Part shown: one piece after another, positions 5,306-42,377 of the stretch | Layout of the letters: each line of letters begins with the position of its first letter | Position numbering within the stretch: position 1 is the first letter of the stretch | DNA from: Actinomycetes bacterium | GTDB taxonomy: Bacteria; Actinomycetota; Acidimicrobiia; Acidimicrobiales; SZUA-35 | Assembly (NCBI GenBank): GCA_024280015.1 | Contig: JAJRQY010000065.1 | Coordinates: 1-45,418, forward strand | DNA: 45,418 nucleotides | Direction of reading: 5' to 3' | The notes under the pieces: generated by a model | Databases searched by the model: none | Told to the model about the DNA's origin: nothing | The model's input: only the letters and a program-made list of their open reading frames with translations | Made by a program: the position numbers and the translations under genes

Positions 5306-6124
5306 TCAGCCTTCCTCTGCTTGTGGGCCAGGGCAGTCCTCGCCATGCTCACCACCGCCGCCGGGGGTGACCATTGGATCGGCACAAGCCAGAAGAGAAT
5401 CAACATCGATGTGGATGTCTTCGCCGGATTCGATGCGTTCGCGCATGTCGTCCATCCACTCCAGGTAGGCGTCGCCCGTGGTGTCTTCCTCAGACAAGAT
5501 GGCCCGCTCGTGGAACACAACTAGCTCAAGCTCGAGCAGGCTGTAGGTGCCTGCATGGGCTGGCATGTTGCCAAGCGTTCCAGCCACTCGTTGGCCGTCG
5601 GCCCGTTCGGCTCCGTAGGCCTCACCGTTGATGGCGGTTGAACCACGAGCAACGTGCACCATCTGATCAATTGGATCAGGGAAGGTTTCAAGAACAGAGC
5701 CTCCACTTAGCTGGTAGCCAACCCCGCCACCGCCACTGGCGCCATGGCAAGAAGCGCAAGTGGAAAAGGCCTCGGCCGCATCAATGAAGAGGAGATCTTC
5801 GGTCGGAGGAAGCTGCATGGTTCCGGCAAAAGAAATAGCCCAGATTGGCAGAAAGAATACTAGAACGAGTGCCCACATTGGGATGCGATTCCGCTTGCGT
5901 GCACGCTGCACCGCTTCGGATTCCGGCTTGGCCGGTTCAGGCTCGGAGTCCTTGGGAATGGCGGCAGCAGCGGCGGCGATAGCCGGTGGCCCGCTCGGAA
6001 CCGGGTCAGCTTTGGCTGGCGTGACCGATGACGAGGCGGCGGCCGCAGGAGCAGCATCATCGTCGCCACCCTTGCCCTTGGCGGCCTTACTTCGTTTCAA
6101 GAGATGTTCGGGGATCTCAGTCAC
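5306..6124 (-). CDS. Membrane-anchored monoheme c-type cytochrome
   Basis: The protein has 272 residues with a GTG start. It begins with the motif MTEIPEHLLKRSKAAKGKG, then an Ala/Pro/Glu-rich linker, a basic stretch (RARKRNR) and one transmembrane helix at about residues 82-100, placing the rest outside the membrane. The heme motif CASCH is at residues 123-127 and a plausible Met axial ligand lies in the NMPAHAG segment. It should carry electrons for the quinol oxidoreductase encoded divergently from 6454. Support for that link is the shared N-terminal IPEHL motif, which reappears in the subunit IV-like gene at 8217. The C-terminus is acidic and Gly-rich. Family-level identity is secure; the partner is inferred. 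Confidence 0.88.
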   Translation of the reverse strand: MTEIPEHLLKRSKAAKGKGGDDDAAPAAAASSSVTPAKADPVPSGPPAIAAAAAAIPKDSEPEPAKPESEAVQRARKRNRIPMWALVLVFFLPIWAISFAGTMQLPPTEDLLFIDAAEAFSTCASCHGASGGGGVGYQLSGGSVLETFPDPIDQMVHVARGSTAINGEAYGAERADGQRVAGTLGNMPAHAGTYSLLELELVVFHERAILSEEDTTGDAYLEWMDDMRERIESGEDIHIDVDSLLACADPMVTPGGGGEHGEDCPGPQAEEG

Positions 6125-6175
6125 GGGTTGCTCTCACTTGCTGGTGCGGTGCTTGAACTGGGGCCTCGTGCCCGT

Positions 6176-6453: not shown

Positions 6454-6897
6454 ATGGTTGCCCTAGTGGTGTCGGTACTCATCTCAATACTTATGGCCGC
6501 CGGCATCTGGTGGTATTCCAGACGTCGACCTGTCGGAGCCGTCATGACTTGGGGCGAAGCTGCGGTCTTCTCGGCCTACATCTTCTTCTTGATGTTTATT
6601 GTGTTTGGCATTGTCCCTCACCAGTGGTTGACGTTGGCTGAGAACGAGTGGAGCTTTCGCTCGGACAAGTTTGTCTACGGCTGGGGCGACATTGTTCGTC
6701 CCCAAAGCCAGGGTGGCTGGCTGCCGTTCGACATCACCCGTCGGGTCATCTCCGATGTCGCCGCGGCCCTCATCTACATCGTCTTTTTGGGGATCATGTC
6801 TGGCATGTGGGCTTCTTGGCAGGCCCGAGGCAAGGCCAAGACCTCAACGGAAGTAGCCAAGAGCACCTATGGCCGACCACTGGTGAAGCGGGGCTGA
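6454..6897 (+). CDS. Unknown membrane protein, first gene of the b6f-like cluster
   Basis: The protein has 147 residues. The ATG at 6454 has AGGAG eight bases upstream, which fixes the start. Hydrophobic segments lie at about residues 1-20 (MVALVVSVLISILMAAGIWW), 32-52 (around AVFSAYIFFLMFIVFGIVP) and 105-128 (around VAAALIYIVFLGIMSGMWASW), with a charged C-terminal tail. The loop between helices 2 and 3 is Trp-rich. I do not recognise a named family. Its position, three bases before the ferredoxin gene and on the same strand as all following redox genes, suggests an accessory or assembly subunit of the quinol oxidoreductase; this is inference from context. Confidence 0.75.
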   Translation: MVALVVSVLISILMAAGIWWYSRRRPVGAVMTWGEAAVFSAYIFFLMFIVFGIVPHQWLTLAENEWSFRSDKFVYGWGDIVRPQSQGGWLPFDITRRVISDVAAALIYIVFLGIMSGMWASWQARGKAKTSTEVAKSTYGRPLVKRG

Positions 6898-6900
6898 TCC

Positions 6901-7317
6901 GTGGGCTATACCGATGCGAACCCCCCGCTCCCCGAATTCCGGGACGACTATGTCTTGGTTGAAGTTGACGCCGACTATCTGGCCAAGGCCGTCAAGCCAA
7001 AACAGTTCATTCACATTGACCAGTCCGAGTGCATTACCTGCGAGGGCTGCGTCGACATCTGCCCGTGGAAGTGCATCCACATGCAGAAGACTGATTCGAT
7101 CTCGGAAAGCTTCGGTATTGCCAAACCCGGCGATGATCCAGCCGATGCCTTCATCTTCACCATCGACGATGATGTCTGCACCCGCTGCGCCCTGTGCGTT
7201 GACCGTTGCCCGACCGGGGTCATCATCCTCGGCAAGATCTCAGACGCCAGCCCGACCGGCGATCACCACCAGCGAACCCCTACCCATGGCTATGGCTATG
7301 GAATGCGGCTTGGCTAG
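6901..7317 (+). CDS. 2[4Fe-4S] ferredoxin of the b6f-like gene cluster
   Basis: The protein has 138 residues with a GTG start three bases after the preceding stop. It has two complete 4Fe-4S motifs: C44-x2-C47-x2-C50-x3-C54-P, with an additional Cys at 58, and C93-x2-C96-x2-C99-x3-C103-P. There are no membrane segments, so it should lie in the cytoplasm or on the cytoplasmic face. The region between the clusters is longer than in a minimal bacterial ferredoxin, and there is a ~40-residue N-terminal part and a Gly/Tyr-rich tail (GYGYGMRLG). Its place between a membrane protein and the cytochrome b genes suggests it is a subunit or immediate electron partner of that complex. A free ferredoxin serving complex I copy 2 is another possibility. 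Confidence 0.9.
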   Translation: MGYTDANPPLPEFRDDYVLVEVDADYLAKAVKPKQFIHIDQSECITCEGCVDICPWKCIHMQKTDSISESFGIAKPGDDPADAFIFTIDDDVCTRCALCVDRCPTGVIILGKISDASPTGDHHQRTPTHGYGYGMRLG

Positions 7318-7371
7318 CTCGAACCTCTTTTACTCCTAACCCTTCTCACCGAAACGCGACCCAGGAAGCTC

Positions 7372-8163
7372 ATGGCAAAGTCGATACAAGACAAGCCTTC
7401 AATGGCTGAAAAAGCGGCAACACAGATGACTGACGTCATGAATACTGTGCAAGGCGGCCAGGTATGGAATTCGATCTTCCGACCTGGCTCGGTCTTCCGC
7501 AAGGGCTACACCGACAGCCCGCGTAACCGTTCCTACGTCATCATGAACTCGGTCTTGTACCACCTTCACCCAGTAAAGGTGAAGCGCCACGCAGTCAAGG
7601 TGTCCTACACCTTGTGCCTTGGCGGTCTTAGTTTCTTCCTCTTCATCGTACTGACGGTTACCGGCATCTTCTTGATGTTCTTCTACCGTCCTACGGCTGC
7701 CGCAGCCTGGGGCGACATCTACACCCTGCAAACCTCGGTGACCTTCGGATTGCTGGTTCGAAACATGCACCGATGGGGCGCTCACCTCATGGTGCTTTCG
7801 GTCTTCTTGCACATGGCCCGAGTCTTTTACCACGGCGCATACAAGGCCCCTCGTGAGTTCAACTGGGTGATTGGCACCATGCTGCTGCAGTTCACCCTCC
7901 TTCTTTCCTTCACTGGCTACCTGCTGCCTTGGGATCAGCTAGCCCTTTGGGCGGTAACCGTTGGCACCAACATGATGGGTTACACCCCAGTGTTCGGCGA
8001 CCAGGTCAAATTTGTGCTCCTTGGCGGGAAAGTCATTGGAACCACCACCCTGCTTCGTTGGTACGTGCTCCACGTACTGATGTTGCCGTTCGTAACCGTT
8101 ATCTTCATGGCTATCCATTTCTGGAGAGTTCGAAAGGACGGTGGGATTTCCGGGCCGCTTTAG
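7372..8163 (+). CDS. petB: Cytochrome b6-like subunit (N-terminal half of split cytochrome b)
   Basis: The protein has 263 residues; the ATG is preceded by an AGGA box. It is the four-helix heme-binding half of a quinol:acceptor oxidoreductase. Heme b ligands are H133 and H147 (13 residues apart) and H234 and H249 (14 residues between them, the b6f-type rather than bc1-type spacing). The end of the protein, RKDGGISGPL, matches the cytochrome b6 terminus. C82 in the segment TLCLGGLSF aligns with the Cys that covalently binds heme ci in cytochrome b6 and in Firmicute relatives. An N-terminal ~60-residue extension precedes the conserved core. The protein should work with the subunit IV-like product of 8217-8975 and the Rieske protein. 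Confidence 0.95.
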   Translation: MAKSIQDKPSMAEKAATQMTDVMNTVQGGQVWNSIFRPGSVFRKGYTDSPRNRSYVIMNSVLYHLHPVKVKRHAVKVSYTLCLGGLSFFLFIVLTVTGIFLMFFYRPTAAAAWGDIYTLQTSVTFGLLVRNMHRWGAHLMVLSVFLHMARVFYHGAYKAPREFNWVIGTMLLQFTLLLSFTGYLLPWDQLALWAVTVGTNMMGYTPVFGDQVKFVLLGGKVIGTTTLLRWYVLHVLMLPFVTVIFMAIHFWRVRKDGGISGPL

Positions 8164-8216
8164 ACCCAACTGATCCCATTGGACACCACGATCTTCCGGA
8201 CAAGAGGAACCACCGC

Positions 8217-8975
8217 ATGACAGAAATTCCAGAACATCTCCGCAAAAGAGCAGCCTAGGCCAGAAAAAAAGCTGAGGCCACACCTGAGGCTGACGCGCCT
8301 GCGGCCAGCGAGGATGCGCCGGTCAGTGAAGCGGCATCAAAAATCCCCGCCCACCTGTTGGAACGCTCCAAGTCTGCGAAGGGCAAGGGGGCAGTAGCGA
8401 CTGCGGCACCAGCTGCAGCAGCATCTGCGGTTGCCGCCGCTACCGCGGTTGCCGATGGTCCGGTCATGACCGGAGCAGCTGGCCACACCCAGCGACTTCT
8501 GACGGTGGTCAAGTCCGGCTCAATCCAAGACATCAAGATGAAGCCAATGGACAAGGTCCACGTCTGGCCCCACCTCATCATTGTCGAGTTTGGTGCTGCC
8601 CTGTTTTGCCTTGGGTTCCTCACCATCTTCTCCATTTTCGTCAATGCACCCTTGCTCATCCTGGCCAACGTCAACCAGACGCCAAACCCTTCCAAGGCCC
8701 CGTGGTACTTCCTCGGTCTGCAGGAAATGTTGACCATGTTTCACCCGATGGTTGCTGGTGTGACGGTGCCTGGTATCGGCCTCATCATCCTGACGATGGC
8801 CCCCTATATCGACAAGAACCCCAGCAACAAGCCGGAGGATCGCAAATTTGCCATCAGCTTGTTCACCACGTTCATGATGTTCTGGTCGGTTCTGGTCATG
8901 ATTGGCTCATTCTTCCGTGGGCCCGGTTTCAACTTTGTCTTCCCATGGGCCGACGGCCTGTTCTTCGAGCTGTAG
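8217..8975 (+). CDS. petD: Cytochrome b subunit IV-like protein (C-terminal half of split cytochrome b), interrupted by an in-frame TAG
   Basis: This is the quinol-site half of the split cytochrome b. The core has three helices (around HLIIVEFGAALFCLGFL, VPGIGLIILTMAPYI and LFTTFMMFWSVLVMIGSFF) and the Qo-site segment SKAPWYFLGLQEM, in which Ala replaces the Glu of the classical PEWY. The ATG at 8217 has an AAGAGG box and opens MTEIPEHLRKRAA, but codon 14 (8256-8258) is TAG. The same frame then stays open to 8975, and the sequence after the stop continues in character, including a second motif copy IPAHLLERSKSAKGKG. Without readthrough the first usable start is the TTG at 8358. One base change would restore AAG, CAG or GAG, so an assembly error, a real nonsense mutation or restart at 8358 are all possible. 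Confidence 0.85.
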
Positions 8976-8985
8976 AGAGGTCGTT

Positions 8986-9852
8986 ATGGTAATTATCCTC
9001 GTAGTCGGCATCATTGTTCTCGCCCTTCTTGCGCTGATCGGCACCTTGGCGTCGCTTCGCAGCAAGGACACCGAGTCCGCCATCGGTCAACTTTCCGGAG
9101 AAGTGGCGAAGCGTGATCGCGGAGCGGTCGATCTGCAGAGTTCTCAGCCTGGACAGGACGTAGCCGTTGGAGCAGAGATCGAAAAAGCCGTTGCCGAACA
9201 ACGTTCAGGCAAGCTGGTAGCAGCTGGTCCGAAAGCTCCCGTCGCCTATGTGCCACCGGATCCCGAGACACTCGGCGTCGCTCGCCGTCAATTCCTCAAT
9301 CGGGGCATCCTGGCCACCTTCAGCTTCGGCCTCACCGGATTCGGCTTGGCCTGCATTGGCTTCTTGTGGCCACAAGGTTCATCCGGGTTCGGCTCGCGGA
9401 TCACCGTCGGACGCCTGCCTGATATCCAGGCCGCAATCAAGGCTGGCGGCGGATTCTTCTATGTTCCCGAAGGCCGCATGTGGGTCACTGAGTACCCGCA
9501 CTTCGCCCTGGAAAAGGCGAAGTCGACCTACTCGTTCTACGATCAGGTTTCCCAAGGGCTTGAAGTTGGTGTCGTTGCCTTGTTCCAGACGTGCCCTCAC
9601 CTTGGCTGTCGTGTTCCCGAATGCGGAACTTCCCAATGGTTCGAGTGCCCCTGCCACGGCTCTCAGTACAACCGCGTCGGTGAGAAGAAGGGCGGCCCTG
9701 CCCCCCGAGGAATGGATCGTTTCCCCATGGAAGTCAGCGCTGGGAATGAACTCATTGTTGACACCGGAGCGGTCATCAAGGGCCCACCGATTGGTACAAA
9801 CACTACGGGTCAAGAGGCCGAGGGACCGAACTGCGTCGGAGGTGGCCACTGA
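8986..9852 (+). CDS. Rieske [2Fe-2S] iron-sulfur protein
   Basis: The protein has 288 residues; the ATG at 8986 with GAGAGG upstream is chosen because it gives a clean N-terminal helix. Two hydrophobic segments lie at about residues 2-22 and 106-128, the second preceded by ARRQFLNRG, a twin-arginine-like sequence. The Rieske domain binds the cluster through C203, H205 (CPHLGC) and C221, H224 (CPCHGS), with C208 and C223 as the disulfide pair. It moves electrons from quinol at the Qo site to cytochrome c. The extra N-terminal helix and charged linker (about 80 residues) recall the multi-helix QcrA of Actinobacteria more than chloroplast PetC. It starts 10 bases after the cytochrome b gene and overlaps the next gene by one base. 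Confidence 0.96.
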   Translation: MVIILVVGIIVLALLALIGTLASLRSKDTESAIGQLSGEVAKRDRGAVDLQSSQPGQDVAVGAEIEKAVAEQRSGKLVAAGPKAPVAYVPPDPETLGVARRQFLNRGILATFSFGLTGFGLACIGFLWPQGSSGFGSRITVGRLPDIQAAIKAGGGFFYVPEGRMWVTEYPHFALEKAKSTYSFYDQVSQGLEVGVVALFQTCPHLGCRVPECGTSQWFECPCHGSQYNRVGEKKGGPAPRGMDRFPMEVSAGNELIVDTGAVIKGPPIGTNTTGQEAEGPNCVGGGH

Positions 9853-11408
9853 TGAGTTCAGTCGCTCTTCTTGGAATTGACTACCGGGGTATTGGCCTCA
9901 CCGTTGCTTCCATTGTCCTCATTGCCTTCGTTGCCCTCTTTATTCGCAATATCTTCCTGGCCAAGCCCGAACTTGGATCAGAAATTGAGCTCGCCGCTAA
10001 CCGGGTTCCCTATCTAAGCGATGAAGAACTCGAAGGACCCAAGCTGGACAAGTCGCTGAGCTTCGCCCTTGTCTTGTTGGCCCTCGTGTCTGTCTCTCTT
10101 CCCTTCTACTGGCTAGCTGAGCCGGGGCGTCAAGAAGGTGCGGTCGATGCCTACCAGCTGAACTTCGAAAGTCGAGGCGAAGGCAGCTACTTGCGTGGTG
10201 CTCAGTGCGTGAATTGCCACGCCGCCGGTGGAGTCGGCGGTTCGGCCCCTTATGTCTTGCAGGACGTGGACGGACAGTTCATTGCCAACGCAACTTGGCA
10301 GGCTCCGGCACTCAACAATATTTTCAACCGGTACGACGAAGAAGAGGTCACCTACATCCTCAACTATGGTCGTCCAGGCTCGCCTATGGCTGCCTGGGGA
10401 ACGCCTGGCGGTGGACCGCTGACCACCCAACAAGTCCAGAACATCATCGAGTACATCCAGACCTTCCAGGTACAGAGCCTCGACCCAATCGTGATAGCGA
10501 CTGCGGAGGATTCCGTGGCTGCTCAGGCTGCGGCTGATGAGCTGGCCCAGGAAGTCCAAGAGGAGCTCCAGCGATCCATTGATGATGGAGAGTTCGAGAC
10601 GGTTGGTGAAGCCGTCTTCAACCTTGGCTATTTCAGTGGATTCAAAGCAGGTTCATTGAGCTGCGCTCGTTGCCACACCGCAGGCTGGTCTCTTGGCCCT
10701 GATACTCCGCGTGATGTTGGGGCCGATCCGCTCTCAACCGGAGTGGCTGCTTGTGGCGGCGGTGACCCCTCAGGCATTGGCTACAGCCTCTGTGGCGGAG
10801 TGACCGACCGATTCCCCGACGACAGCTGGAAGAATCCCGATGGATCCTGGGCCCCATCAGGTGGACACTCAAGTCTGGCTGCCAACGGAACACTGGACTA
10901 TAAGTACTACCTTTCTTCTGCTAACGAAGAGATCCGATTGGACGCTTCGGGTAGGCCCATCGCCGACCAGACTGATGACGAGGGCAATCCGATCCCCTAC
11001 ACCATCTTGAGCGGTGATCAGAATGGAGATCTGGCCATCTGCGGGTTCAATTCCAAGCTATGGGAGCCCAACGGTGTTGCCGCCAACGCCTACCCATTCG
11101 ATCCCCAGTTCGTGCCCGTCTATGACGAGGAGAGCGGCAATTTCCTTGCTCCCCCAGAACTGGATCCGGCCAGCCTGTCGGGCTTGGTTATCGAATTCGC
11201 TGATGGACGGGTCGGTGGTGATTGCGCCATTGTGGAAATGCCAGAACGTACCAGTCGAGCGCAATTCGACTTCATCTCCAATGGCTCCGAAGCAGGAGCG
11301 GGATACGGCAAGGGTGGCCAGAGCCATCGAGGCATGATGCCAGGCTTTGCCGGGCTGCTACCGGCCGAGTACATTCAAGAAGCCGTTGACTACGTGCGAG
11401 GTCTGTGA
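9852..11408 (+). CDS. Membrane-anchored diheme c-type cytochrome
   Basis: The protein has 518 residues and starts on the A of TGATG, so translation is probably coupled to the Rieske gene. There are two N-terminal hydrophobic segments (about residues 12-36 and 68-88). Two heme c motifs are visible: CVNCH at 119-123 and CARCH at 271-275, each in its own cytochrome c-like domain. The region after residue 300 is long and Gly/Pro-rich, with Cys pairs (AACGGG, SLCGG, CGFN) not in heme motifs. A diheme cytochrome fused to the quinol oxidoreductase is the actinobacterial QcrC arrangement, though this protein is about twice QcrC length. It probably passes electrons from Rieske to a terminal oxidase encoded outside the window. 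Confidence 0.92.
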   Translation: MSSVALLGIDYRGIGLTVASIVLIAFVALFIRNIFLAKPELGSEIELAANRVPYLSDEELEGPKLDKSLSFALVLLALVSVSLPFYWLAEPGRQEGAVDAYQLNFESRGEGSYLRGAQCVNCHAAGGVGGSAPYVLQDVDGQFIANATWQAPALNNIFNRYDEEEVTYILNYGRPGSPMAAWGTPGGGPLTTQQVQNIIEYIQTFQVQSLDPIVIATAEDSVAAQAAADELAQEVQEELQRSIDDGEFETVGEAVFNLGYFSGFKAGSLSCARCHTAGWSLGPDTPRDVGADPLSTGVAACGGGDPSGIGYSLCGGVTDRFPDDSWKNPDGSWAPSGGHSSLAANGTLDYKYYLSSANEEIRLDASGRPIADQTDDEGNPIPYTILSGDQNGDLAICGFNSKLWEPNGVAANAYPFDPQFVPVYDEESGNFLAPPELDPASLSGLVIEFADGRVGGDCAIVEMPERTSRAQFDFISNGSEAGAGYGKGGQSHRGMMPGFAGLLPAEYIQEAVDYVRGL

Positions 11409-12352
11409 TGTTGTCTTTCCTCTCGACTACTGGGTTCGCCTTTATTGGTGGCGTGGCATTTGATCCGTTCTTCCGCGGTGTACTTGTGGTCATGGTCGGC
11501 GTTGTTGTCCTGATGGGTAGCACCTACCTGCTGGTAGCAACCAACGCAGGACCGCGTGTTGGCGGGCTGATCGCCGCCGCCGCCCTCTTTGGTTGGATGG
11601 CCATGATGGGCGTCTTCTGGACCATTTATGGCATTGGATGGAAGGGCGAGGCCGAGTCTTGGAGTCTGGTTGAGATCACCAGCGACAGTCCGAGCAGAGG
11701 TGACGACGGTCTGCTGTTCTCCGGTGATGAAACCGTGATCGAACTTGGTGACTCACTTCAGAGCTTCTCTGTCGCCGACGGAGCCTTGTCTGAGGATCCC
11801 GACATTGCTCAGCAGGAGGCACTGGACTTTGCCAGAGCCAATGCCGATGACTTGGCTGGCTGGCGCTATCTGGTGACATCTAACCCTCGTCGAGGTGAGG
11901 CTCAGGCTTCAGCTGATGAGTATTTGCACGCCCACGAGGTCTTTGCCAGTACGGCGGACTACGTACCTCTGCGATTTGGTGCCTACAACATTGGTGGCAA
12001 GCCCCTCCTGGTTGATGATCCCAACGTTGTTGACCGGGTTCTGCACAAGCTGGACACCACCTTTGTTCACTTCTGGCACCCTCAAGAACTGATCATCATC
12101 CAGGTTCAGGGAGCGGTTGACGTTGCCGCCCTGCCTGGCGACGCGCCTCCTGTTGCCTCCCCTGACCCGGACAAGCCCATTGTCAGCGTGGTCATGGAAC
12201 GTGATCGTGGTGGACCACTACCCGTTCTCTTTGGTGGGACACGTGTCACACCGGCTCTTTTTGGAATATTTAATGGCATCATCTTTGGTCTCCTCGTGTG
12301 GTCCATGCATCTGCGTGACCGTCGCGAAGAGGCCATTCGAGCAGCCGCCTAA
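11408..12352 (+). CDS. Unknown membrane protein, last gene of the b6f-like cluster
   Basis: The protein has 314 residues; the ATG at 11408 overlaps the stop of the diheme cytochrome gene (TGATG). It has two N-terminal helices (about residues 19-44 and 50-72), a large hydrophilic domain of about 190 residues, and a C-terminal helix (ALFGIFNGIIFGLLVWSMHL) with a basic tail. There is no CxxCH, Fe-S motif or known copper motif. I do not recognise the family. Tight coupling to the cytochrome gene and position before nuoA1 suggest an accessory subunit of the quinol oxidoreductase or a factor linking it to complex I; this is inference. Confidence 0.75.
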   Translation: MLSFLSTTGFAFIGGVAFDPFFRGVLVVMVGVVVLMGSTYLLVATNAGPRVGGLIAAAALFGWMAMMGVFWTIYGIGWKGEAESWSLVEITSDSPSRGDDGLLFSGDETVIELGDSLQSFSVADGALSEDPDIAQQEALDFARANADDLAGWRYLVTSNPRRGEAQASADEYLHAHEVFASTADYVPLRFGAYNIGGKPLLVDDPNVVDRVLHKLDTTFVHFWHPQELIIIQVQGAVDVAALPGDAPPVASPDPDKPIVSVVMERDRGGPLPVLFGGTRVTPALFGIFNGIIFGLLVWSMHLRDRREEAIRAAA

Positions 12353-33700: not shown

Positions 33701-34210
33701 ATGGGTCTGGTTGAATCAGGAAAGCTGCCAAAGCCCCTGACAACAATTCTGAATACCAGCCGCAAGTACTCCCTCTGGGTTTACCAGTGGGGTCTAGCTT
33801 GCTGCGCCATCGAGATGGGTGCCGCTTTTGGTTCTCCTCGCTATGACGTGATGCGCCTCGGGGTCATCCCGCTGCCCGCTAGCCCACGCCAGGCCGACCT
33901 TGTTGTCATCTCCGGAACAGTCACCGACAAGATGGCTCCCGCCATTCGACGGTTGTACGAGCAGATGCCGGAGCCAAAGTACGTCATCTCCATGGGATCC
34001 TGCGCCAACTGCGGTGGCCCCTATTGGGACAGCTACTCAGTAACCAAGGGAGTGGACCAGATCATTCCCGTCGATGTCTATGTTCCCGGCTGCCCTCCCC
34101 GGCCCGAAGCCTTGCTCGAAGGCATTGTGCTGTTGCAAGAGATCATCCAGAACGAAGACATGGCCGAGAAGTGGAAGAACGATCCGCTAGCCGTCGGGGT
34201 GGTTGATTGA
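33701..34210 (+). CDS. nuoB: NADH-quinone oxidoreductase subunit B, copy 2
   Basis: The protein has 169 residues; the ATG has AGAGAGG upstream. Cluster N2 ligands are all present: C34, C35, C101 and C131 ([28 protein letters not shown]). The MGSCANCGG form differs from the MGVCASSGG of copy 1, showing that the two operons are anciently diverged rather than a recent duplication. Its stop overlaps the nuoC2 ATG by one base (TGATG). Confidence 0.98.
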
Positions 34211-34908
34211 TGGCTGATGCAACCGAAACAGAAGAACCAGTCGTGGTCGACGAGGCTCGCTCCGCCTTGCTGGAAGCAATCACCGCCGATCTGGGTGATG
34301 CCCTTGTTGGCTCGCACCTGCTTCCCGGCAAGGATCTCTGGATCCGGGTCAGCAGCGAGTCCTGGGGTTCAACCGCCAGTTATCTGCGAAGCAAGCAACA
34401 GTTCCGCTTCTTCAACTTCCTTTCCGCCATTGATTGGCTGCCGTCTCCGTTTGGCCGTTCACATGGTTCATCCGTCGATGTTGCGCTTGGCAATGAAGAC
34501 GAGGCCGAGGTTGAAACCACTCTTGGTTCGGGCTATGCCGGCGGCGAAACCCGCTTTCAGGTGCTAGCTCGAGTACACAGCCTGACCACCAATATGGGAA
34601 TCACGGTCAAGGCCGACTTCCCCGAAGACTCTCTCAGTGTCGGAACCTGGATCAATGACTACCCCGGGGCAAACTGGCACGAGCGAGAAGCAGCCGAGAT
34701 GTTCGGCGTGCACTTCGCTGGCCATCCAAATCTGACTGCCCTGTACCTGCCTTCGGCCTTCGAAGGTCATCCTCTTCGCAAGGACTTTCCCCTCCTGTCT
34801 CGCATGGTCAAGCCATGGCCCGGCATCGTTGACGTTGAGGCCATGCCAGAAATTGAACAGTCTGCAACTGCTGATTCGTCTGCCTCGACGGAGAACCCCG
34901 AATCATGA
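34210..34908 (+). CDS. nuoC: NADH-quinone oxidoreductase subunit C, copy 2
   Basis: The protein has 232 residues from the ATG at 34210. The 30-kDa signature reads [40 protein letters not shown]. An internal hydrophilic stretch (about residues 85-115, GNEDEAEVETTLGSGYAGG) is longer than in copy 1, and the C-terminus has a ~30-residue Ser/Glu tail. It is fused neither to NuoB nor NuoD. It overlaps nuoD2 by four bases (ATGA). Confidence 0.96.
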   Translation: MADATETEEPVVVDEARSALLEAITADLGDALVGSHLLPGKDLWIRVSSESWGSTASYLRSKQQFRFFNFLSAIDWLPSPFGRSHGSSVDVALGNEDEAEVETTLGSGYAGGETRFQVLARVHSLTTNMGITVKADFPEDSLSVGTWINDYPGANWHEREAAEMFGVHFAGHPNLTALYLPSAFEGHPLRKDFPLLSRMVKPWPGIVDVEAMPEIEQSATADSSASTENPES

Positions 34909-36077
34909 CCGCCATTAGCGATCGCCGACAACTGGCTTACATCGCCGCCCAAGCGGCCGACGCCCGAGTCAATATCGAGCTTGAAGCCGAGGGGATGACC
35001 CTCAATATCGGGCCCCAGCACCCCGCCACCCACGGAACCCTTCGCATTGTTGCCCGCCTGGACGGCGAGCAAGTAGTCGAAGCCAACCCGATCATGGGCT
35101 ACATGCATCGTGGCTATGAGAAGCTGGCCGAGGTTCGCACCTATCCCCAAGTCACTGCCCTCATCAACCGGATTGACTGGCTTGGCAGCTTCGCCAATGA
35201 GGTTCCTTTCATCCTGGCCAGCGAGCAGCTCATGGGCATCGAAGCCCCCGAGCGAGCCCAGCACATTCGCACCATCTTGTTTGAGATGGCCCGCATCGCC
35301 AACGTCACCCTCTTCCTGGGCGACATGGGCGTGCAGCTCGGCGCCGTCACCCCAATCTTCTACGCCTTCCGCGACCGCGAACACATCCTCAACCAGATCG
35401 AATCGGCCACCGGCGGCCGATTCCACCCCAACTTCGACCGCATTGGCGGCCTGAAGGACGACCTGCCCGCAGGCTGGATTGACGAAACCAAGCGTTCACT
35501 GAAAGAGATCCGCAAGTTCTGTGACCAGATGGAAGATCTGATCATCGGAAACGAGATCTTCCAGGCTCGTACCCGCAACATCGGCGTCATTCCGGCTGAT
35601 ATTGCTCTGAGCTACGGCATGAGCGGCGCCAACCTGCGCGCCTCGGGAGTTGATTGGGACCTGCGTCGCGATTCACCAGTCGGCTTGGCCTATGACAAGG
35701 TCGACTGGAAGGTTTGGACCCACACCGACGGCGACTCCTTCGCCCGCTACTGGGTCCGGCTGCAAGAAACCCGGGAAAGCTGCAAGATTGTCGAGCAATT
35801 GCTGGACACGATTCCCTCTGGCCCGATCATGGCCAAGGTTCCTCGCATCATCAAGGTCCCCGCCGGCGAAGCCTTTATTGAAACCGAGAACCCACTCGGC
35901 GTAATGGGCTACTACGTTGTCAGCCAAGGCGGCCTCGAACCCTTCCGGGTCAAGATCCGCTCCGCCAGTTTCTCCAATATGTCCATCTCCCCTTGGCTAC
36001 TCAAGGGCGCCTACGTCCCGGACGTGATCACAATCCTTGCCTCGCTCTATTTCATCCTGGGAGACATCGACCGATGA
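34905..36077 (+). CDS. nuoD: NADH-quinone oxidoreductase subunit D, copy 2, with atypical quinone-site residue
   Basis: The protein has 390 residues with an ATGA overlap with nuoC2. The 49-kDa fold is clear: LNIGPQHPATHGTLRIV with the conserved His, GYMHRGYEKLAEVRTYPQ, and a C-terminus ending LYFILGDIDR. R69 in MHRG aligns with Arg85 of mature NDUFS2, which NDUFAF7 dimethylates in mitochondria. W92 in NRIDWLGS aligns without gaps with Y115 of NuoD1, the quinone-headgroup Tyr (Tyr87 in Thermus Nqo4). So this subunit keeps the methylation site and changes the ligand Tyr, the reverse of copy 1. nuoH2 follows at an ATGA overlap, leaving no room for nuoEFG. Confidence 0.97.
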   Translation: MTAISDRRQLAYIAAQAADARVNIELEAEGMTLNIGPQHPATHGTLRIVARLDGEQVVEANPIMGYMHRGYEKLAEVRTYPQVTALINRIDWLGSFANEVPFILASEQLMGIEAPERAQHIRTILFEMARIANVTLFLGDMGVQLGAVTPIFYAFRDREHILNQIESATGGRFHPNFDRIGGLKDDLPAGWIDETKRSLKEIRKFCDQMEDLIIGNEIFQARTRNIGVIPADIALSYGMSGANLRASGVDWDLRRDSPVGLAYDKVDWKVWTHTDGDSFARYWVRLQETRESCKIVEQLLDTIPSGPIMAKVPRIIKVPAGEAFIETENPLGVMGYYVVSQGGLEPFRVKIRSASFSNMSISPWLLKGAYVPDVITILASLYFILGDIDR

Positions 36078-37135
36078 TGCTCGCCTGGATCTGGTCAGAT
36101 TGGCCATGGACACTGGACACGGTTGTCCGACTGATATTCGCCATTGTCGTGGTCTTGTTGCCAGCGGGCGTCACCGTCTATCTCTACTTGTTCAAGATGG
36201 TCTCCTTCATGCAGAGCCGCCTCGGCCCTATGGAGGCTGGACCGTATGGATCGATGCAGCTCCTCGCTGAGGTTGGCAAGAACCTGCAGAAGGAAGACAT
36301 CTTCCCGGCAAAGGCCGACCGAACGATCTTTGCCTTGGCCCCCTATGTCGTGCTGATGAGCACCTTCTTGTTGGCTGTCGTCATCCCCTTCGGCCCACAA
36401 GCCACCTTCGTCAACCTTGACACTGGCGTCTTCTTCGCTCTGGCTGTCTCCTCTGTCTCTGTCGTCGGTGTCATCATGGCTGGCTGGGCTTCGGCCTCCA
36501 AGTACTCACTGCTTGGCGGCTTGCGAGCCGCCGGTCAGCTCATCGCCTACGAACTGCCCCTGATCTTGGCGGTTGTCGGCGTGGTCATCCAGGCTGGAAC
36601 CCTCAATCTGCAAGGCATCGTCACTGCCCAGACCCAGGGTGAAATCTTCGGCTTTGGTGGCCTTGGCCATCCGTTCATCCTCACCCAATTCATCGGCTTC
36701 TTCATCTTCCTGGTCGCGGTACAAGCCGAACTGACCCAGGTCCCCTTCGACATGCCAATTGCCGAGTCCGAACTCGTCTCTGGCTACATGACCGAATACT
36801 CGGGCTTTCGTTTCCTGATGTTCTTCATCGCCGAGTTCGCAACCGCCAATATCTTCGCCTTCCTCGGAGCCACCCTCTTCCTTGGTGGCTGGCAGGTTCC
36901 CCCATTCGTCCATGATCTGCTCGGGGTCGACGCCAACTGGCAATACTTCAACCTCATCGGTCCCGGCGTCATGCTGTTTAAGATGCTGGTCCTGACCTTC
37001 GTCGTCTATTGGGTGCGATTCACCTTCCCCCGCTTCCGTGAAGATCAGTTGCAGAAGTTCGCTTGGAAGTTCCTGATCCCGCTTTCGCTGGTCAACATCG
37101 CCATCACTGGTGTTCTCAAGGTGGCCTTCTCATGA
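36074..37135 (+). CDS. nuoH: NADH-quinone oxidoreductase subunit H, copy 2, divergent type
   Basis: The protein has 353 residues; the ATG at 36074 overlaps the nuoD2 stop. About eight helices are visible. The family is secure from FPAKADR, SKYSLLGGLRAAGQLIAYELPL, PFDMPIAESELVSGYMTEYSGFRF and FPRFREDQL. The first-helix motif that reads [16 protein letters not shown] in copy 1 is YLFKMVSFMQSRLGPM here, so the conserved Glu and Arg are missing. In the acidic loop, copy 1 VEAEQEL is IAESEL. These residues line the quinone chamber. The C-terminal tail of NuoH1 is absent. Confidence 0.96.
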   Translation: MMLAWIWSDWPWTLDTVVRLIFAIVVVLLPAGVTVYLYLFKMVSFMQSRLGPMEAGPYGSMQLLAEVGKNLQKEDIFPAKADRTIFALAPYVVLMSTFLLAVVIPFGPQATFVNLDTGVFFALAVSSVSVVGVIMAGWASASKYSLLGGLRAAGQLIAYELPLILAVVGVVIQAGTLNLQGIVTAQTQGEIFGFGGLGHPFILTQFIGFFIFLVAVQAELTQVPFDMPIAESELVSGYMTEYSGFRFLMFFIAEFATANIFAFLGATLFLGGWQVPPFVHDLLGVDANWQYFNLIGPGVMLFKMLVLTFVVYWVRFTFPRFREDQLQKFAWKFLIPLSLVNIAITGVLKVAFS

Positions 37136-37635
37136 GTCTTGTTCCCGGCCTGATTACCGGCCTCGGTGTCACCTTCAAAGAAATCATCAAAACGATGACC
37201 ACGGGGGCCGAAACCGTCCAGTACCCCCACGTCAAGGAAGACCCACCGGCCCGTGCCCGTGGTGTCATTGCCTTACACCAAGACAACTGCACCGCTTGCA
37301 TGTTGTGTGTTCGGGAGTGCCCCGACTGGTGCATCTATATCGAAGGCCACAAGACCCTGGCTCCGCCCCGTCGTGCCGGTGGAAAGCCCCGAACCGTCAA
37401 TGCCCTTGACCGCTTCGACATCGACTACGGCTTGTGCATGTACTGCGGGATCTGTGTTGAGGTTTGTCCTTTCGACGCCATCTTCTGGAGTCCGGAGTAC
37501 GAATACTCCGAACCCCGCATCGCCGACCTGCTTCACGACAAAACCCGCCTGAGCCAGTGGATGGAAACCGTTCCCGAGTTTGAGTCCTATGAAGCTGGCT
37601 CCGCAGCCAAGGTCAAGAAGGTGCCACGCCCATGA
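37132..37635 (+). CDS. nuoI: NADH-quinone oxidoreductase subunit I, copy 2
   Basis: The protein has 167 residues; the ATG at 37132 overlaps nuoH2 (ATGA). It has two 4Fe-4S clusters: C53, C56, C59, C63 (CTACMLCVREC) and C102, C105, C108, C112 (CMYCGICVEVC). An N-terminal amphipathic helix (LITGLGVTFKEIIKTM) should rest on the membrane. Without NuoEFG, these clusters would be the entry point for electrons from an external donor such as ferredoxin. It ends in an ATGA overlap with nuoJ2. Confidence 0.97.
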   Translation: MSLVPGLITGLGVTFKEIIKTMTTGAETVQYPHVKEDPPARARGVIALHQDNCTACMLCVRECPDWCIYIEGHKTLAPPRRAGGKPRTVNALDRFDIDYGLCMYCGICVEVCPFDAIFWSPEYEYSEPRIADLLHDKTRLSQWMETVPEFESYEAGSAAKVKKVPRP

Positions 37636-38180
37636 GCGCCTTCCTTCTTGCCCAAACAGACGTGATTGCTCTGACTGACACCGAAGCCTGGGTCATCAAC
37701 GGGTTCTTCTATGTACTGGCCGTTGTTGGCTTGCTGGCTGCCCTCAAGATGGTCACCACCAAGAATGTGGTCCACGCCGCCTTGTACCTGCTCATCGTTC
37801 TCAGCGTTGTTGCCGGGGTCTACATCATCCTCGGCGCCGAGTTTGCCGCTGCTACCCAGGTCATGGTCTATATCGGTGCGGTCATGGTGCTGCTCTTGTT
37901 CGGTGTCATGCTGACCCGGGCCAAGATTGGTGACGATGGCGATCTGGACTATGACCAGAAATGGATCGGGGCTCTCACCTCGGTCTCCATGTTTGCCGTT
38001 ATGGGCTACTCCCTGTGGGAAGCCTTCGAAGATGACAAGCTGCCATCTGACATGATGCCCCAACGCACCGGCGAAGTAGCCAACTCGATCTTCAGCCAGT
38101 ACATCGTGCCCTTCGAGGCACTCTCGATGCTTCTGCTCGCTGCCCTCATCGGGGCCGTCGTTGTGGCCAGGAGGGATTAG
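37632..38180 (+). CDS. nuoJ: NADH-quinone oxidoreductase subunit J, copy 2
   Basis: The protein has 182 residues. NuoJ signatures: NVVHAALYLLIVLSVVAGVYIILGAEFAAATQVMVYIGAVMVLLLFGVMLTRA, and a last helix ALSMLLLAALIGAVVVARRD. A short hydrophobic N-terminus precedes the first helix. It overlaps nuoI2 by four bases; nuoK2 starts three bases after its stop, with AGGAGG inside its final codons providing the ribosome binding site. Confidence 0.97.
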   Translation: MSAFLLAQTDVIALTDTEAWVINGFFYVLAVVGLLAALKMVTTKNVVHAALYLLIVLSVVAGVYIILGAEFAAATQVMVYIGAVMVLLLFGVMLTRAKIGDDGDLDYDQKWIGALTSVSMFAVMGYSLWEAFEDDKLPSDMMPQRTGEVANSIFSQYIVPFEALSMLLLAALIGAVVVARRD

Positions 38181-38183
38181 CTA

Positions 38184-38483
38184 ATGTTCCTAAACCAGTT
38201 CCTCTTCTTTGCCGCTGGCCTGTTCAGTATTGGCGTGTATGGCGTGCTCACCCGTAAGAACGGCGTCTTAGTCCTGATGTCCATTGAGTTGATCCTCAAC
38301 GCGGTGAATATCAACCTGGTGGCCTTCGGAGCCTTCAATCAAGACATCTCCGGCCAAGTTTTTGCCCTTTTCGTGATCGCTGTCGCTGCAGCCGAAGTGG
38401 GAGTTGGGTTGGCCATCGTGCTGCTCATCTTCCGCAACCGTCGCAGTATTGACATCGCTGAAGCCGACCTTCTCAAGGGTTGA
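38184..38483 (+). CDS. nuoK: NADH-quinone oxidoreductase subunit K, copy 2
   Basis: The protein has 99 residues and three helices. Both conserved membrane glutamates are present ([18 protein letters not shown] and [18 protein letters not shown]). It is a normal length for the family and more compact at its junction than copy 1, having no spacer before it. It is separated from nuoL2 by 12 bases. Confidence 0.98.
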
Positions 38484-38495
38484 TCGGGAGCCTCT

Positions 38496-40805
38496 GTGAA
38501 CCTTCTTCTTGCTGCTGAAGCGGCCGTCCAGGCCCCAGCCATCTTTGACTATGTATGGCTCATTCCGGCCATCATGGCCACCTCGTTTGTCCTCATCTTG
38601 TTCTTCTCCAAGCGGCTAAACATCAATCCTCACTTCATTGGTGTTCCCGCTATTGGCTCGGCCTTCCTGCTTGCGCTGGTTATTGCCTTCTCCTGGGTTG
38701 GCTACAACGGTGATGTTTCCGAGGCCGGTGGTGTCACAGGATCTTGTAGCGGCCGAGACCTTCAAGTCATCGAAGGTGGGCATGAGGCCGAAGCCGAAGC
38801 CGATGCTGGGCACGGTGAAGAAGCTGACGCCGAAGCCGCTGCCGAACACGGTGGAGAGGCCGATGCCGAAGCCACTGGCGAACATGGTGGCGGTCATGAG
38901 CGATTCAGTCCTTGCCCCGTCGTCAATGATGTAACCTGGTTCCAGAATGGCGGACCGGTGCAAGATGGTGGGTCCGACATCAATATCGGAACCCTGGTCG
39001 ATGGTCAGGCCGCCATGCTGTTGGTGGTTGTCACCCTGATCTCGGGCCTTGTCCATGTCTATTCAACCGACTATGTCGCTGGCGATCGCCGCTATACCCA
39101 CTATTTCGCCTTCCTGTCCTTCTTCACTGCCTCCATGCTGTTCATGGTTCTGTCCTCCAGCACAGTTCAACTGCTGGTCGGCTGGGAGTTGGTTGGCGTC
39201 TCCTCCTTCGTACTTATTGGGCATTGGTGGGAAGAGAAGGACAATTCTGACGCCGCCATGAAGGCTTTCCTCACCAACAGGGTTGGTGACATTGGCCTCC
39301 TTATTGGCCTCATAATCTTGTACTTTGCCGCAGGCAAGACCTTTGACATCGTCGCCATCAACGAGGCTGCCGTGTCAGGCATGATCTCCAAGAACACCCT
39401 GTTGGCCGCCGGGCTCTTTTTGATGACCGCGGTCATGTCCAAGTCCGGGCAGTTCGTCCTCCACACCTGGCTACCCGACGCCATGGCTGGACCAACACCC
39501 GTCTCGGCCCTGATCCACGCCGCCACCATGGTGGTGGCCGGGGTCTACCTCATCGGTCGCTTGTACCCCGTCTTCTATGTTGGATTCGGCATGGACGGCG
39601 GAGCCCTCAACGTCATGGCCTTCATTGGCGCCATCACCTGCGTTGGTGCTGGTGCGCTGGCCTTTGTTCAGGATGACATCAAGAAGGTGTTGGCCTACTC
39701 AACGGTCTCCCAACTCGGTTACATGGTGCTGGCCCTTGGTGTTGGTGCCTACACCGCTGGCATGTTCCACCTCTTCACCCACGCCATCTTCAAGGCTTGC
39801 CTGTTCCTCGGTGCTGGCTCGGTTAGTCACGCTTGCCACCACAGTTTCGACATGAAGAAGGACATGGGCGGACTGCGCAAGTTCATGCCAAAGACGTTCT
39901 GGACCTTCGTGATTGCTTCGGGAGCCCTGGCCGGGATCCCACCCCTGGCCGGTTTCTGGTCCAAGGACGAGATCCTGGTTGGAGCTGGGGCGTTCCCCGG
40001 CACCGGCGGCAATGGAACCTACTGGATGCCCTTCATCTTTGGCATGATCGCCGCCGGTATGACTGCGGGCTACATGACCCGAGTGATCTGGCTCACTTTC
40101 TTTGGTGAGTACCGGGGACATGAGCATCCGCACGAGTCCGGTCCACGTATCACCACCCCGCTCATCATCTTGGCCGTCGGTGCGGTGTTCGCTGGCTTCT
40201 TGAATGTGCCCAAGGGACTGCCGATCCTTGGTGATCTCTTTGGTGAGTCCTTCGTTAGCTGGGTTGAGCCAGCCAGTATCAGTTCGTTCCCATCCATCAA
40301 GCACGGCAACCCCAGCCTCTGGCTCGCCATGCTTGCCACCTCCATTGGCCTCTTTAGTGGCTTCGTCGTGTGGACGTACTACAACAAGCTGTACGCCAAG
40401 GACCCCCTGGCCACCGAGGTCACCGGTGGGTTGCGAGACAAGAGTTCGCTGGCCCGAGCTGGCCACACCTTGCTGGTCGAGAAGTACTACTTGGACCATC
40501 TCTACACCGACATCATTGCCGGTGGGGTCAAGGGTCCGGTGGCCAAGGCGGCCTACTGGTTCAACCAGAACATCTTGGATGGCATCATCAATTCCATTGG
40601 AAACGGGACGACCTCACTCGGTCGCTTCGTTTACAAGTACATCGACCAGGGCACCATTGATGGTGCGGTCAACGCGTCAGGAGCAGGAGCCGCTGGCTCC
40701 GGCGACATCCTGCGCAAGGTTCAGTCCGGACAGATTCGACAGTACGCAACCTTGATGTTTGCAGCAGCAGCTCTTCTCGCTGCCGTCTTCATCATCGCGG
40801 TGTAA
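38496..40805 (+). CDS. nuoL: NADH-quinone oxidoreductase subunit L, copy 2, with a His/Glu/Ala repeat insert
   Basis: The protein has 769 residues with a GTG start. The core signatures are intact: LVGWELVGVSSFVLIGHWWE, KSGQFVLHTWLPDAMAGPTPVSALIHAATM, DIKKVLAYSTVSQLGYM and PPLAGFWSKDEIL. Between the second and third helices, on what should be the outer (P) side, is an insert at about residues 84-140 bounded by two Cys (C84, C140). It holds a 12-residue unit EADAEAAAEHGG / EADAEATGEHGG and a looser earlier copy. It lacks the long coiled-coil insert of NuoL1, so the two NuoL proteins differ in opposite places. It overlaps no neighbour. Confidence 0.97.
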   Translation: MNLLLAAEAAVQAPAIFDYVWLIPAIMATSFVLILFFSKRLNINPHFIGVPAIGSAFLLALVIAFSWVGYNGDVSEAGGVTGSCSGRDLQVIEGGHEAEAEADAGHGEEADAEAAAEHGGEADAEATGEHGGGHERFSPCPVVNDVTWFQNGGPVQDGGSDINIGTLVDGQAAMLLVVVTLISGLVHVYSTDYVAGDRRYTHYFAFLSFFTASMLFMVLSSSTVQLLVGWELVGVSSFVLIGHWWEEKDNSDAAMKAFLTNRVGDIGLLIGLIILYFAAGKTFDIVAINEAAVSGMISKNTLLAAGLFLMTAVMSKSGQFVLHTWLPDAMAGPTPVSALIHAATMVVAGVYLIGRLYPVFYVGFGMDGGALNVMAFIGAITCVGAGALAFVQDDIKKVLAYSTVSQLGYMVLALGVGAYTAGMFHLFTHAIFKACLFLGAGSVSHACHHSFDMKKDMGGLRKFMPKTFWTFVIASGALAGIPPLAGFWSKDEILVGAGAFPGTGGNGTYWMPFIFGMIAAGMTAGYMTRVIWLTFFGEYRGHEHPHESGPRITTPLIILAVGAVFAGFLNVPKGLPILGDLFGESFVSWVEPASISSFPSIKHGNPSLWLAMLATSIGLFSGFVVWTYYNKLYAKDPLATEVTGGLRDKSSLARAGHTLLVEKYYLDHLYTDIIAGGVKGPVAKAAYWFNQNILDGIINSIGNGTTSLGRFVYKYIDQGTIDGAVNASGAGAAGSGDILRKVQSGQIRQYATLMFAAAALLAAVFIIAV

Positions 40806-40817
40806 GGGAAACAGCAA

Positions 40818-42371
40818 ATGGAACACACCTTCCTCGCCGACTACGGCATCTCACTCATGGTCTTCTTACCTCTGGTAGGAGCGGCCTTGATGATGCTGAT
40901 CTCGGGCAAGAACGAAGAGATTCACAAGCAGATTGCTTTGGGCACGACGGTCCTGACCGGTCTGGTCGGCGGCTGGCTTGTCACCGACTTCTACCGACTT
41001 GGCTCCGAGCACTGGGGCGAGCTTCGATACGGCGTTGACAAGTCCTGGATCGACATTGTCAATGCCCGCTACACCGTTGCCGTTGATGGCATCTCTATCC
41101 CACTTATCGCCCTGACCCTGCTGGTGGTGCCACTGGTCATTGTTTATAGCTGGAACCACATTCCCAATCCCGGCAATGCCAAAGCCTTCCTCATGCTCAT
41201 CCTGGTGCTCCACACCGGAATGCTTGGCAGCTTCGTCGCTCAGGACCTGGTGCTGTTCTTCGTCTTCTTCGAAGTTGTTCTGCTCCCCATGTACTTCATG
41301 ATCGGTGTTTGGGGCGGCGAGCAACGGCTCTACGCCGCCATCAAGTTCTTCTTGTTCACCCTGTTCGGCTCGGCCTTGATGCTGGTTAGCTTCCTGGCCC
41401 TGTACTGGGCAACCGGTGGAACAACCTTCAATATGGTCGAGCTGGCCGCCCTGGTGCAGTCCAGCGACATCAAGATCGGAACCCAGGTCTTGATCTTTGG
41501 CGGCATGTTCATGGGCTTTGGCATCAAGGTGCCAATGTTCCCCTTCCACACCTGGCTGCCTGATGCTCATACCCAGGCTCCAACTCAAGGTTCGGTCATC
41601 CTGGCTGCAGTCTTGTTGAAGCTCGGGACCTACGGCTTCATCCGGATTGCCATCCAGATCCTTCCCGAGGCTGCCATCAAGTGGGCTCCGTGGATTGGCT
41701 TGCTGGCTGTCATCGGCATCATCTATGGCGCCCTTGGCTGCCTGGCTCAGACCGACATGAAGCGCCTCATCGCCTTCTCCTCGGTGGCCCATATGGGTTA
41801 CGTCATGCTTGGCATCGCCACCATGACCGACTTCGGTCTGAATGCCGCCATCTTCGGCATGGTTGCTCACGGCCTGATCACCGGCATGTTGTTCTTCGTT
41901 GCCGGCTCCATCAAGGAGCGTTACCACACCCTGGAAATCAAGCGGCTTGGAGGCTTGCTGATCTCGGCCCCTCGCATGGGTTGGATCCTGGGCTTCTGCG
42001 TCATGGCATCGCTTGGCTTGCCTGGCCTTGCCGGATTCTGGGGTGAGTTCCCGGCCATTCTCGCTGCCTACCAGCCGCAAGAGGGCATCTCCGAAAGCCT
42101 GTTCCGGGTCTATATGGTCGTCGCCGCTATCGGCACGGTGCTGGCCGCCGGCTACCTGCTTTGGCTGCTTCAGCGCACCGCATTCGGAAACCCGTCAGAA
42201 GAGTTCGAAGACGACCCAGCAATCACCGATGTTGTCTTCACCGAATGGGTGGCGTGGATTCCGCTCCTCGCCCTGATTGTCTTGTTCGGCTTTGTCCCCG
42301 GTCTGATGTTTGACCTCACCGATGGCCCAGTCACCGCTCTCGCCAATGCCCTCGCGGCAGCCGGGAAGTAG
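40818..42371 (+). CDS. nuoM: NADH-quinone oxidoreductase subunit M, copy 2
   Basis: The protein has 517 residues, normal length. Signatures: LVLFFVFFEVVLLPMYFMIGVWGGEQRLYAAIKFFLF, IKVPMFPFHTWLPDAHTQAPTQGSVILAAVLLKLGTYG and MKRLIAFSSVAHMGYVM. It has no charged C-terminal extension like NuoM1. It starts 12 bases after nuoL2 and ends six bases before nuoN2. Confidence 0.98.
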   Translation: MEHTFLADYGISLMVFLPLVGAALMMLISGKNEEIHKQIALGTTVLTGLVGGWLVTDFYRLGSEHWGELRYGVDKSWIDIVNARYTVAVDGISIPLIALTLLVVPLVIVYSWNHIPNPGNAKAFLMLILVLHTGMLGSFVAQDLVLFFVFFEVVLLPMYFMIGVWGGEQRLYAAIKFFLFTLFGSALMLVSFLALYWATGGTTFNMVELAALVQSSDIKIGTQVLIFGGMFMGFGIKVPMFPFHTWLPDAHTQAPTQGSVILAAVLLKLGTYGFIRIAIQILPEAAIKWAPWIGLLAVIGIIYGALGCLAQTDMKRLIAFSSVAHMGYVMLGIATMTDFGLNAAIFGMVAHGLITGMLFFVAGSIKERYHTLEIKRLGGLLISAPRMGWILGFCVMASLGLPGLAGFWGEFPAILAAYQPQEGISESLFRVYMVVAAIGTVLAAGYLLWLLQRTAFGNPSEEFEDDPAITDVVFTEWVAWIPLLALIVLFGFVPGLMFDLTDGPVTALANALAAAGK

Positions 42372-42377
42372 CTGACG

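What the first reader, a model, noticed from the sequence alone, without database searches (positions are those of the whole stretch)
6901..7317. A 2[4Fe-4S] ferredoxin built into a cytochrome b6f-like operon
Seen: the gene lies three bases after a membrane protein and just before the cytochrome b6-like gene, with two complete Cys motifs plus an additional C58. Known: in chloroplasts ferredoxin supplies electrons for cyclic flow to the b6f Qi side, and heme ci is the suggested contact. Inference: the complex may accept electrons at its cytoplasmic face from this ferredoxin, or bifurcate electrons from quinol to ferredoxin and cytochrome c. The same ferredoxin could feed the NuoEFG-less complex I.
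Basis: partly seen in the sequence, partly recalled or inferred. Interest (0 to 1): 0.6.

Follow-up and report, generated by a model that had tools for sequence, protein, structure and literature searches.

The report
Ferredoxin partner of respiratory complex III
Many deep-branching Actinomycetota carry a small iron-sulfur protein gene wedged, almost without exception, between two membrane-protein genes of their respiratory complex III, which suggests that the complex exchanges electrons with the cell interior and not only with its quinone pool.

Summary
A 138-aa 2[4Fe-4S] ferredoxin gene lies 3 nt after a 3-TM protein and 54 nt before a heme-ci-type cytochrome b6. The arrangement is a conserved cassette. 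In 148 genomes of the class, all but two of 120 strong orthologs lie 5-312 bp upstream of the orthologous cyt b, the two being one extra copy and one contig fragment. In other classes of the phylum 80 of 84 do; the other four lack cyt b on their contig. Lineages with only canonical QcrB lack the gene. Its closest relative found is not NuoI but a ferredoxin domain fused to a NAD(P)H/FAD oxidoreductase beside cyt b in a second Rieske/cytb complex of this genome, the layout of anammox complexes whose subunits comigrate. Best reading: a cytoplasmic electron-transfer partner or subunit of complex III. Direction is unresolved. Against an obligate role: the gene was lost about five times with the operon otherwise intact. 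OFOR does not co-occur with it (p = 0.5). The EFG-less complex I co-occurs within Acidimicrobiia (86 of 86 near-complete genomes) but not strictly across the phylum. The ci cysteine persists in Fd-less operons, so it is no marker for Fd. Novelty: new variant of a known kind. No biochemistry exists.

The parts
6901..7317 (+). 2[4Fe-4S] ferredoxin, 138 aa, GTG start; no signal peptide or TM seen
   Evidence: AF2 model pLDDT 77
7030..7074 (+). cluster-binding motif I, C44xxC47xxC50xxxC54P, plus invariant Cys58 (CPWxC)
7177..7209 (+). cluster-binding motif II, C93xxC96xxC99xxxC103P
6454..6897 (+). conserved 3-TM protein (147 aa) with a basic C-terminal tail ending YGRPLVKRG; no Pfam family; found upstream of Fd in 147 of 158 loci and kept in Fd-less operons
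7372..8163 (+). cytochrome b6-type N-half of cytochrome b (263 aa)
   Evidence: (NF040969 299.7 bits)
7615..7617 (+). codon of Cys82, aligned to b6 Cys35 that binds heme ci
8217..8975 (+). subunit IV (petD-like) with long N-terminal extension; in-frame TAG at 8256-8258 that the one relative compared residue by residue (L146) does not have
8986..9852 (+). Rieske protein, CPCHGSQY cluster motif (Ser and Tyr)
9852..11408 (+). membrane cytochrome c with two CxxCH motifs
11405..12352 (+). conserved unknown membrane protein (315 aa) at the end of the complex III block
5306..6124 (-). divergent membrane-anchored cytochrome c sharing the N-terminal IPEHLLKRS motif with subunit IV
33701..43898 (+). second complex I operon without NuoE/F/G, candidate Fd partner

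Best explanation
The gene encodes a dedicated cytoplasmic 2[4Fe-4S] electron-transfer partner, probably a peripheral subunit, of a b6f-type menaquinol:cytochrome c reductase. It would dock on the cytoplasmic (N) side of cytochrome b, possibly helped by the adjacent 3-TM protein, and pass electrons between cytoplasmic redox carriers and the N-side hemes (bH/ci) and quinone site. Shown: gene structure, cassette conservation, co-inheritance with this cyt b type, and kinship with a ferredoxin domain fused to a NAD(P)H/FAD oxidoreductase beside a paralogous cyt b. Inferred: docking, cofactor loading and electron transfer. Direction is open: ferredoxin to menaquinone is downhill and somewhat more likely (about 0.55 against 0.45); output to ferredoxin is not excluded because the Rieske motif predicts a high potential.
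For: Linkage 118/118 testable orthologs in the class and 80/84 in the wider phylum, counting fused-type copies; the four others have no cyt b on their contig. TM-Fd spacing mostly -4 to +6 nt. Fd and main-type cyt b co-occur, Fisher p = 2e-16 in genomes at least 90% complete. Named hosts include Salsipaludibacter albus, isolate EGI L10123, Ca. Microthrix and Nitriliruptorales/Euzebyaceae MAGs. Nine Cys invariant. The family profile scores fused cyt-b-linked ferredoxin domains 44-66 bits and the two NuoI 42-43; the reverse profile scores standalone Fds 55-73 and NuoI 27-41. The own-genome paralog operon is FAD/NAD(P)H-2Fer4, cyt b, subunit IV, Rieske, cyt c. Anammox complexes of this layout comigrate, and AF3 models trace [4Fe-4S] clusters to heme cN (PMC12954380). 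Genomes of about 1 Mb keep it.
Against: About five independent losses with the rest of the operon intact (G114, G036, G018, and two or more in family f75), so it is not required for the complex. No copurification or redox data. No structure of a cyt-b-bound ferredoxin is in the PDB copy. Conserved cyt b residues that depart in Fd-less lineages are few and give no clear docking patch. The Fd has no membrane anchor of its own.
Confidence: 0.62

Rival explanations
1. Bifurcating output: menaquinol oxidised at Qo sends one electron to Rieske/cytochrome c and the other through bL, bH/ci to this ferredoxin, making reduced ferredoxin for biosynthesis or CO2 fixation.
For: The main-type Rieske motif is CPCHGSxY (Ser and Tyr), which predicts high potential and so a low-potential bL by the argument used for anammox (PMC12954380). 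Fd is kept in near-complete genomes lacking OFOR. An isolate with this operon (L146) is reported to fix CO2 by the Fd-dependent roTCA cycle (PMC11697166).
Against: Thermodynamically demanding with menaquinone; the cassette is also in streamlined genomes of about 1 Mb; competing Qi-site quinone reduction would short-circuit it; no potentials measured.
Confidence: 0.27
2. The ferredoxin is a shuttle between complex III and the EFG-less complex I (Fd:menaquinone oxidoreductase).
For: In Acidimicrobiia at least 90% complete, 86 of 86 Fd+ genomes have NuoD2 and 16 of 23 Fd- lack it (p = 4e-14); two of four genomes with cyt b but no Fd lack it too.
Against: Most of that signal is co-loss in a few families. 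Across the phylum it breaks: G266, G286, G305 have NuoD2 without Fd; G335, G402, G232, G168 have Fd without NuoD2; large complete genomes (f55, about 7-10 Mb) have NuoD2 without Fd. The independent-pairs test is not significant, median p 0.5.
Confidence: 0.25
3. An ordinary soluble ferredoxin for 2-oxoacid:ferredoxin oxidoreductases that happens to sit in the operon.
For: OFORs are common in the class (PMC11697166) and the fold is that of generic 2[4Fe-4S] ferredoxins.
Against: OFOR presence does not track Fd in either direction (p = 0.5). The fixed location over several classes fits a dedicated partner better.
Confidence: 0.15
4. Assembly or cofactor-delivery protein, or structural subunit, without a catalytic redox role.
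For: Dispensable in several lineages; a novel TM gene is co-inherited.
Against: All eight cluster ligands plus Cys58 are invariant in 40 homologs, and the fused relative is an oxidoreductase.
Confidence: 0.1

Closest known systems
Anammox Rieske/cytb complexes Kuste4569-4574 and Kustd1480-1485 (PMC12954380)
   Same: b6f-type split cyt b, Rieske and multiheme c, with a [4Fe-4S]-bearing cytoplasmic subunit encoded in the same cluster
   Different: Theirs carries FAD/NAD(P) and more clusters; here only the two-cluster ferredoxin remains in the main complex. This genome's paralog has the fused form but lacks the heme-ci Cys, whereas the anammox models include heme cN
Cytochrome b6f with ferredoxin-linked cyclic electron flow
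   Same: Split cyt b6/subunit IV, heme-ci Cys; ferredoxin or FNR proposed to feed the Qi side via heme ci (PMC5683061)
   Different: Here 2[4Fe-4S], not plant [2Fe-2S], ferredoxin; encoded inside the operon; menaquinone (expected from general knowledge), no photosynthesis; membrane cytochrome c, not cytochrome f
NuoI / photosynthetic NDH-1 ferredoxin docking
   Same: Same 2[4Fe-4S] fold, and an extra Cys after the first motif in this organism's NuoI proteins
   Different: Scores below the NuoI cut-off (42.7 vs 113 bits) and is closer to the cyt-b-linked fused domain
Actinobacterial QcrABC (bc1-type complex III)
   Same: Phylum-level functional counterpart
   Different: Genomes with only QcrB-type cyt b lack the Fd

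Membership tests
2[4Fe-4S] bacterial-type ferredoxin | two CxxCxxCxxxCP motifs in a dicluster domain | tested here: met
   AF2 model matches dicluster and polyferredoxin folds
b6f-type (heme-ci) Rieske/cytb complex | cyt b split into b6 and subunit IV | tested here: met
   separate ORFs 7372-8163 and 8217-8975
b6f-type (heme-ci) Rieske/cytb complex | Cys for heme ci | tested here: met
   Cys82 aligns to b6 Cys35; motif kept in Fd-type and Fd-less cyt b compared
b6f-type (heme-ci) Rieske/cytb complex | cytochrome f | tested here: not met
   the operon has membrane cytochromes c of CBB3/Cytochrom_C type instead
Anammox-type Rieske/cytb with N-side NAD(P)H oxidoreductase | [4Fe-4S]-bearing cytoplasmic subunit encoded with cyt b | tested here: met
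Anammox-type Rieske/cytb with N-side NAD(P)H oxidoreductase | FAD/NAD(P) domain in that subunit | tested here: not met
   absent from the 138-aa protein; present only in the paralog operon
Anammox-type Rieske/cytb with N-side NAD(P)H oxidoreductase | comigration of the subunits | not testable with these tools
   needs native gels or complexome profiling
NuoI | score over the NuoI family cut-off | tested here: not met
   TIGR01971 42.7 vs 113.05 bits
Ext (selenite/tellurite operon) b-type cytochrome ExtPQ | ExtP and ExtQ both over cut-off | tested here: not met
   cyt b passes ExtP (299.7 vs 290) but subunit IV fails ExtQ (46.5 vs 150)
Ferredoxin:quinone reductase (function) | Fd-dependent quinone reduction at the N side | not testable with these tools
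   needs biochemistry

The most novel reading that the evidence does not exclude
A whole lineage of respiring bacteria uses complex III as a three-way junction: a built-in ferredoxin lets the b6f-type complex exchange electrons with the cytoplasm at heme ci/bH, either as a respiratory ferredoxin:menaquinone entry point (the counterpart of the proposed FQR route of cyclic photosynthesis) or as a quinol-driven ferredoxin-reducing bifurcator, in some members coupled to an EFG-less complex I.
Probability: 0.4. Interest if true: 0.8.

Novelty: new variant of a known kind. Interest (0 to 1): 0.56.

Why it matters
Whether ferredoxin exchanges electrons with the N side of b6f complexes through heme ci is a debated question in photosynthesis. 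Here the ferredoxin is genetically tied to such a complex, with natural gain and loss variants and a reported culturable carrier, so the question becomes testable. It would also change how respiratory energy budgets are drawn for abundant aquatic and soil Actinomycetota, whose complex III is usually drawn as a plain menaquinol:cytochrome c reductase.

Tried and rejected
(1) About 20 ferredoxin hits in other classes showed one in-frame stop (TGA, TAG or TAA). Those translated were natural C-terminal stops read through by the search, not recoding. (2) OFOR as the partner: no association. (3) A strict Fd/EFG-less-complex-I link, first suggested by the class data, failed as a prediction in the phylum set. 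(4) Mapping a docking patch from cyt b residues that depart in Fd-less lineages: too few changes, and the conserved columns were defined on Fd+ rows only, so biased; only Y46H recurs in two lineages. (5) Fold search of the 3-TM protein: no Foldseek hit with E below 4; the VIA second look gave Z up to 7.1 against unrelated helical membrane proteins, uninformative for a small helical protein; Pfam gave only scattered chance hits. (6) Terminator and promoter scans of 6100-9100: as many as in shuffles. (8) Literature searches found no description of this cassette; the library lacks most subscription papers, including Ten Brink et al. 2013. (9) The His proposed to bind the extra anammox heme could not be tested without the Kuenenia sequences.

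Full report
Observation. The ferredoxin ORF 6901-7317 (+) is real: GTG start, 138 aa, two CxxCxxCxxxCP motifs and Cys58. The preceding 3-TM gene (most likely start 6454) ends at 6897 and cyt b starts at 7372. The block continues with subunit IV, Rieske, a membrane cytochrome c and an unknown membrane protein, then a complete nuoA-N; a second nuo operon without E, F, G follows 5 kb further on.

Conservation. In 148 genomes of the same class, 120 strong Fd matches and 125 main-type cyt b matches were compared by coordinates. 118 pairs are adjacent on the same strand (gap 5-312, median 112 bp). The two unpaired Fds are an extra copy in G107 and a fragment in G076, which has no cyt b match. Of the seven unpaired cyt b, three (G111, G096, G139) have partial Fd hits just upstream, two at a contig end; G084 starts 64 bp from its contig end; G114, G036 and G018 are true losses. 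In the wider phylum (296 genomes, of which 275 lie outside the class or were not in the first set) 80 of 84 Fd hits, including fused-type ones, sit next to a cyt b. Cyt b without Fd there: G256, G266, G286, G305 (losses, three of them inspected), plus contig-edge or split cases and one fused-type copy in G187. Named carriers are Acidimicrobiia and Nitriliruptoria-type lineages. The 3-TM protein precedes the Fd in 147 of 158 loci, often overlapping by 1-4 nt, and stays in Fd-less operons. The gene is therefore co-inherited with this complex but dispensable. On a cyt b tree the fewest changes of Fd presence is five; the inner branches around the f75 losses are poorly supported.

What it resembles. 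The AF2 model (pLDDT 77, 40 sequences) is an ordinary dicluster fold related to polyferredoxins and NuoI; a PDB profile search gives polyferredoxins first. A profile of the family scores the ferredoxin domain of GltD-like oxidoreductases encoded beside paralogous cyt b genes higher than NuoI; the margin is clear for two domains (66 bits) and slight for the others (44-50 against 42-43), and is wider with the reverse profile. In this genome that paralog operon (contig C3) reads Fer4_20/Pyr_redox_2/2xFer4 protein, cyt b, subunit IV, Rieske, cyt c, next to a large NarG-like molybdoprotein (the last named by eye). This is the layout of the Kuenenia complexes, whose subunits comigrate and whose AF3 models run [4Fe-4S] clusters from heme cN (or a predicted extra heme) to FAD (PMC12954380). 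The actinomycetotal fused-type cyt b copies examined lack the heme-ci Cys (Tyr or Arg at that position), while Fd-type and Fd-less main cyt b have it. Heme ci is therefore not diagnostic of ferredoxin exchange.

Function. Shown: genetics and kinship only. Inferred: a cytoplasmic partner or subunit of complex III. The Rieske motif of the main type is CPCHGSxY throughout the loci examined (fused type mostly ..F), which by published reasoning suggests a high potential and leaves quinol-to-ferredoxin bifurcation thermodynamically open; ferredoxin-to-menaquinone is downhill and simpler. That these bacteria use menaquinone is general knowledge, not tested here. Phylogenetic profiles: cyt b main type p = 2e-16; OFOR p = 0.5; NuoD2 p = 4e-14 in the class (86 of 86 Fd+ genomes have it), but this comes largely from families that lost several of these genes together. 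The prediction that Fd-less cyt b lineages elsewhere would lack NuoD2 held for one (G256) and failed for three (G266, G286, G305), and four Fd+ genomes at least 90% complete had no NuoD2 match. NuoD2 in other classes was called at E 1e-100 and about 50% identity, so orthology there is less sure. Completeness classes were taken from the search tables by hand; genomes near 90% could shift a cell by one or two. Fisher tests here ignore relatedness.

Verdict. A robust, apparently undescribed cassette that is a variant of a known kind (Rieske/cytb with a cytoplasmic Fe-S module); mechanism and direction untested.

Noticed in passing
window 8256-8258: In-frame TAG in the N-terminal extension of subunit IV (MTEIPEHLRKRAA*ARKKAEA...). 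The isolate EGI L10123 (L146) reads through without a stop (MTEIPEHLRKRAEEARKKAEA...). Either an assembly error or a tolerated nonsense codon with a downstream start.
   Followed up: partly
window 6023-6124 (-), 8217-8309 (+), 8337-8429 (+): A short motif IPEHLLKRS(K/R)xAKxKG begins the divergent cytochrome c and occurs twice in the subunit IV extension; these are the only three matches found in this genome and several relatives have it in both proteins. It may be a shared binding or assembly tag.
   Followed up: partly
L035 (G000:C3) 6581-10736: Second Rieske/cytb operon with a fused NAD(P)H/FAD/2[4Fe-4S] oxidoreductase, next to a NarG-like molybdoprotein at 12220-15861 (named by eye); its cyt b lacks the heme-ci Cys.
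   Followed up: partly
window 12420-28717 and 33701-43898: Two complex I operons in one 45-kb stretch, one complete and one without NuoE/F/G; NuoD2 was found in 127 of 148 class genomes.
   Followed up: partly
window 9852-11408: The two-heme cytochrome c is 518 aa here against 377-420 aa in the relatives read (L146, L045, L046), an insertion not examined.
   Followed up: no
G107:C1:604493-604903 (L028, L037): A second Fd copy with the same score as the first and no cyt b motif found nearby: gene duplication or assembly artefact.
   Followed up: no
window 11405-12352: Conserved 315-aa membrane protein at the end of the complex III block with no Pfam or NCBIfam family; relatives in L045, L046 and L146.
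   Followed up: no
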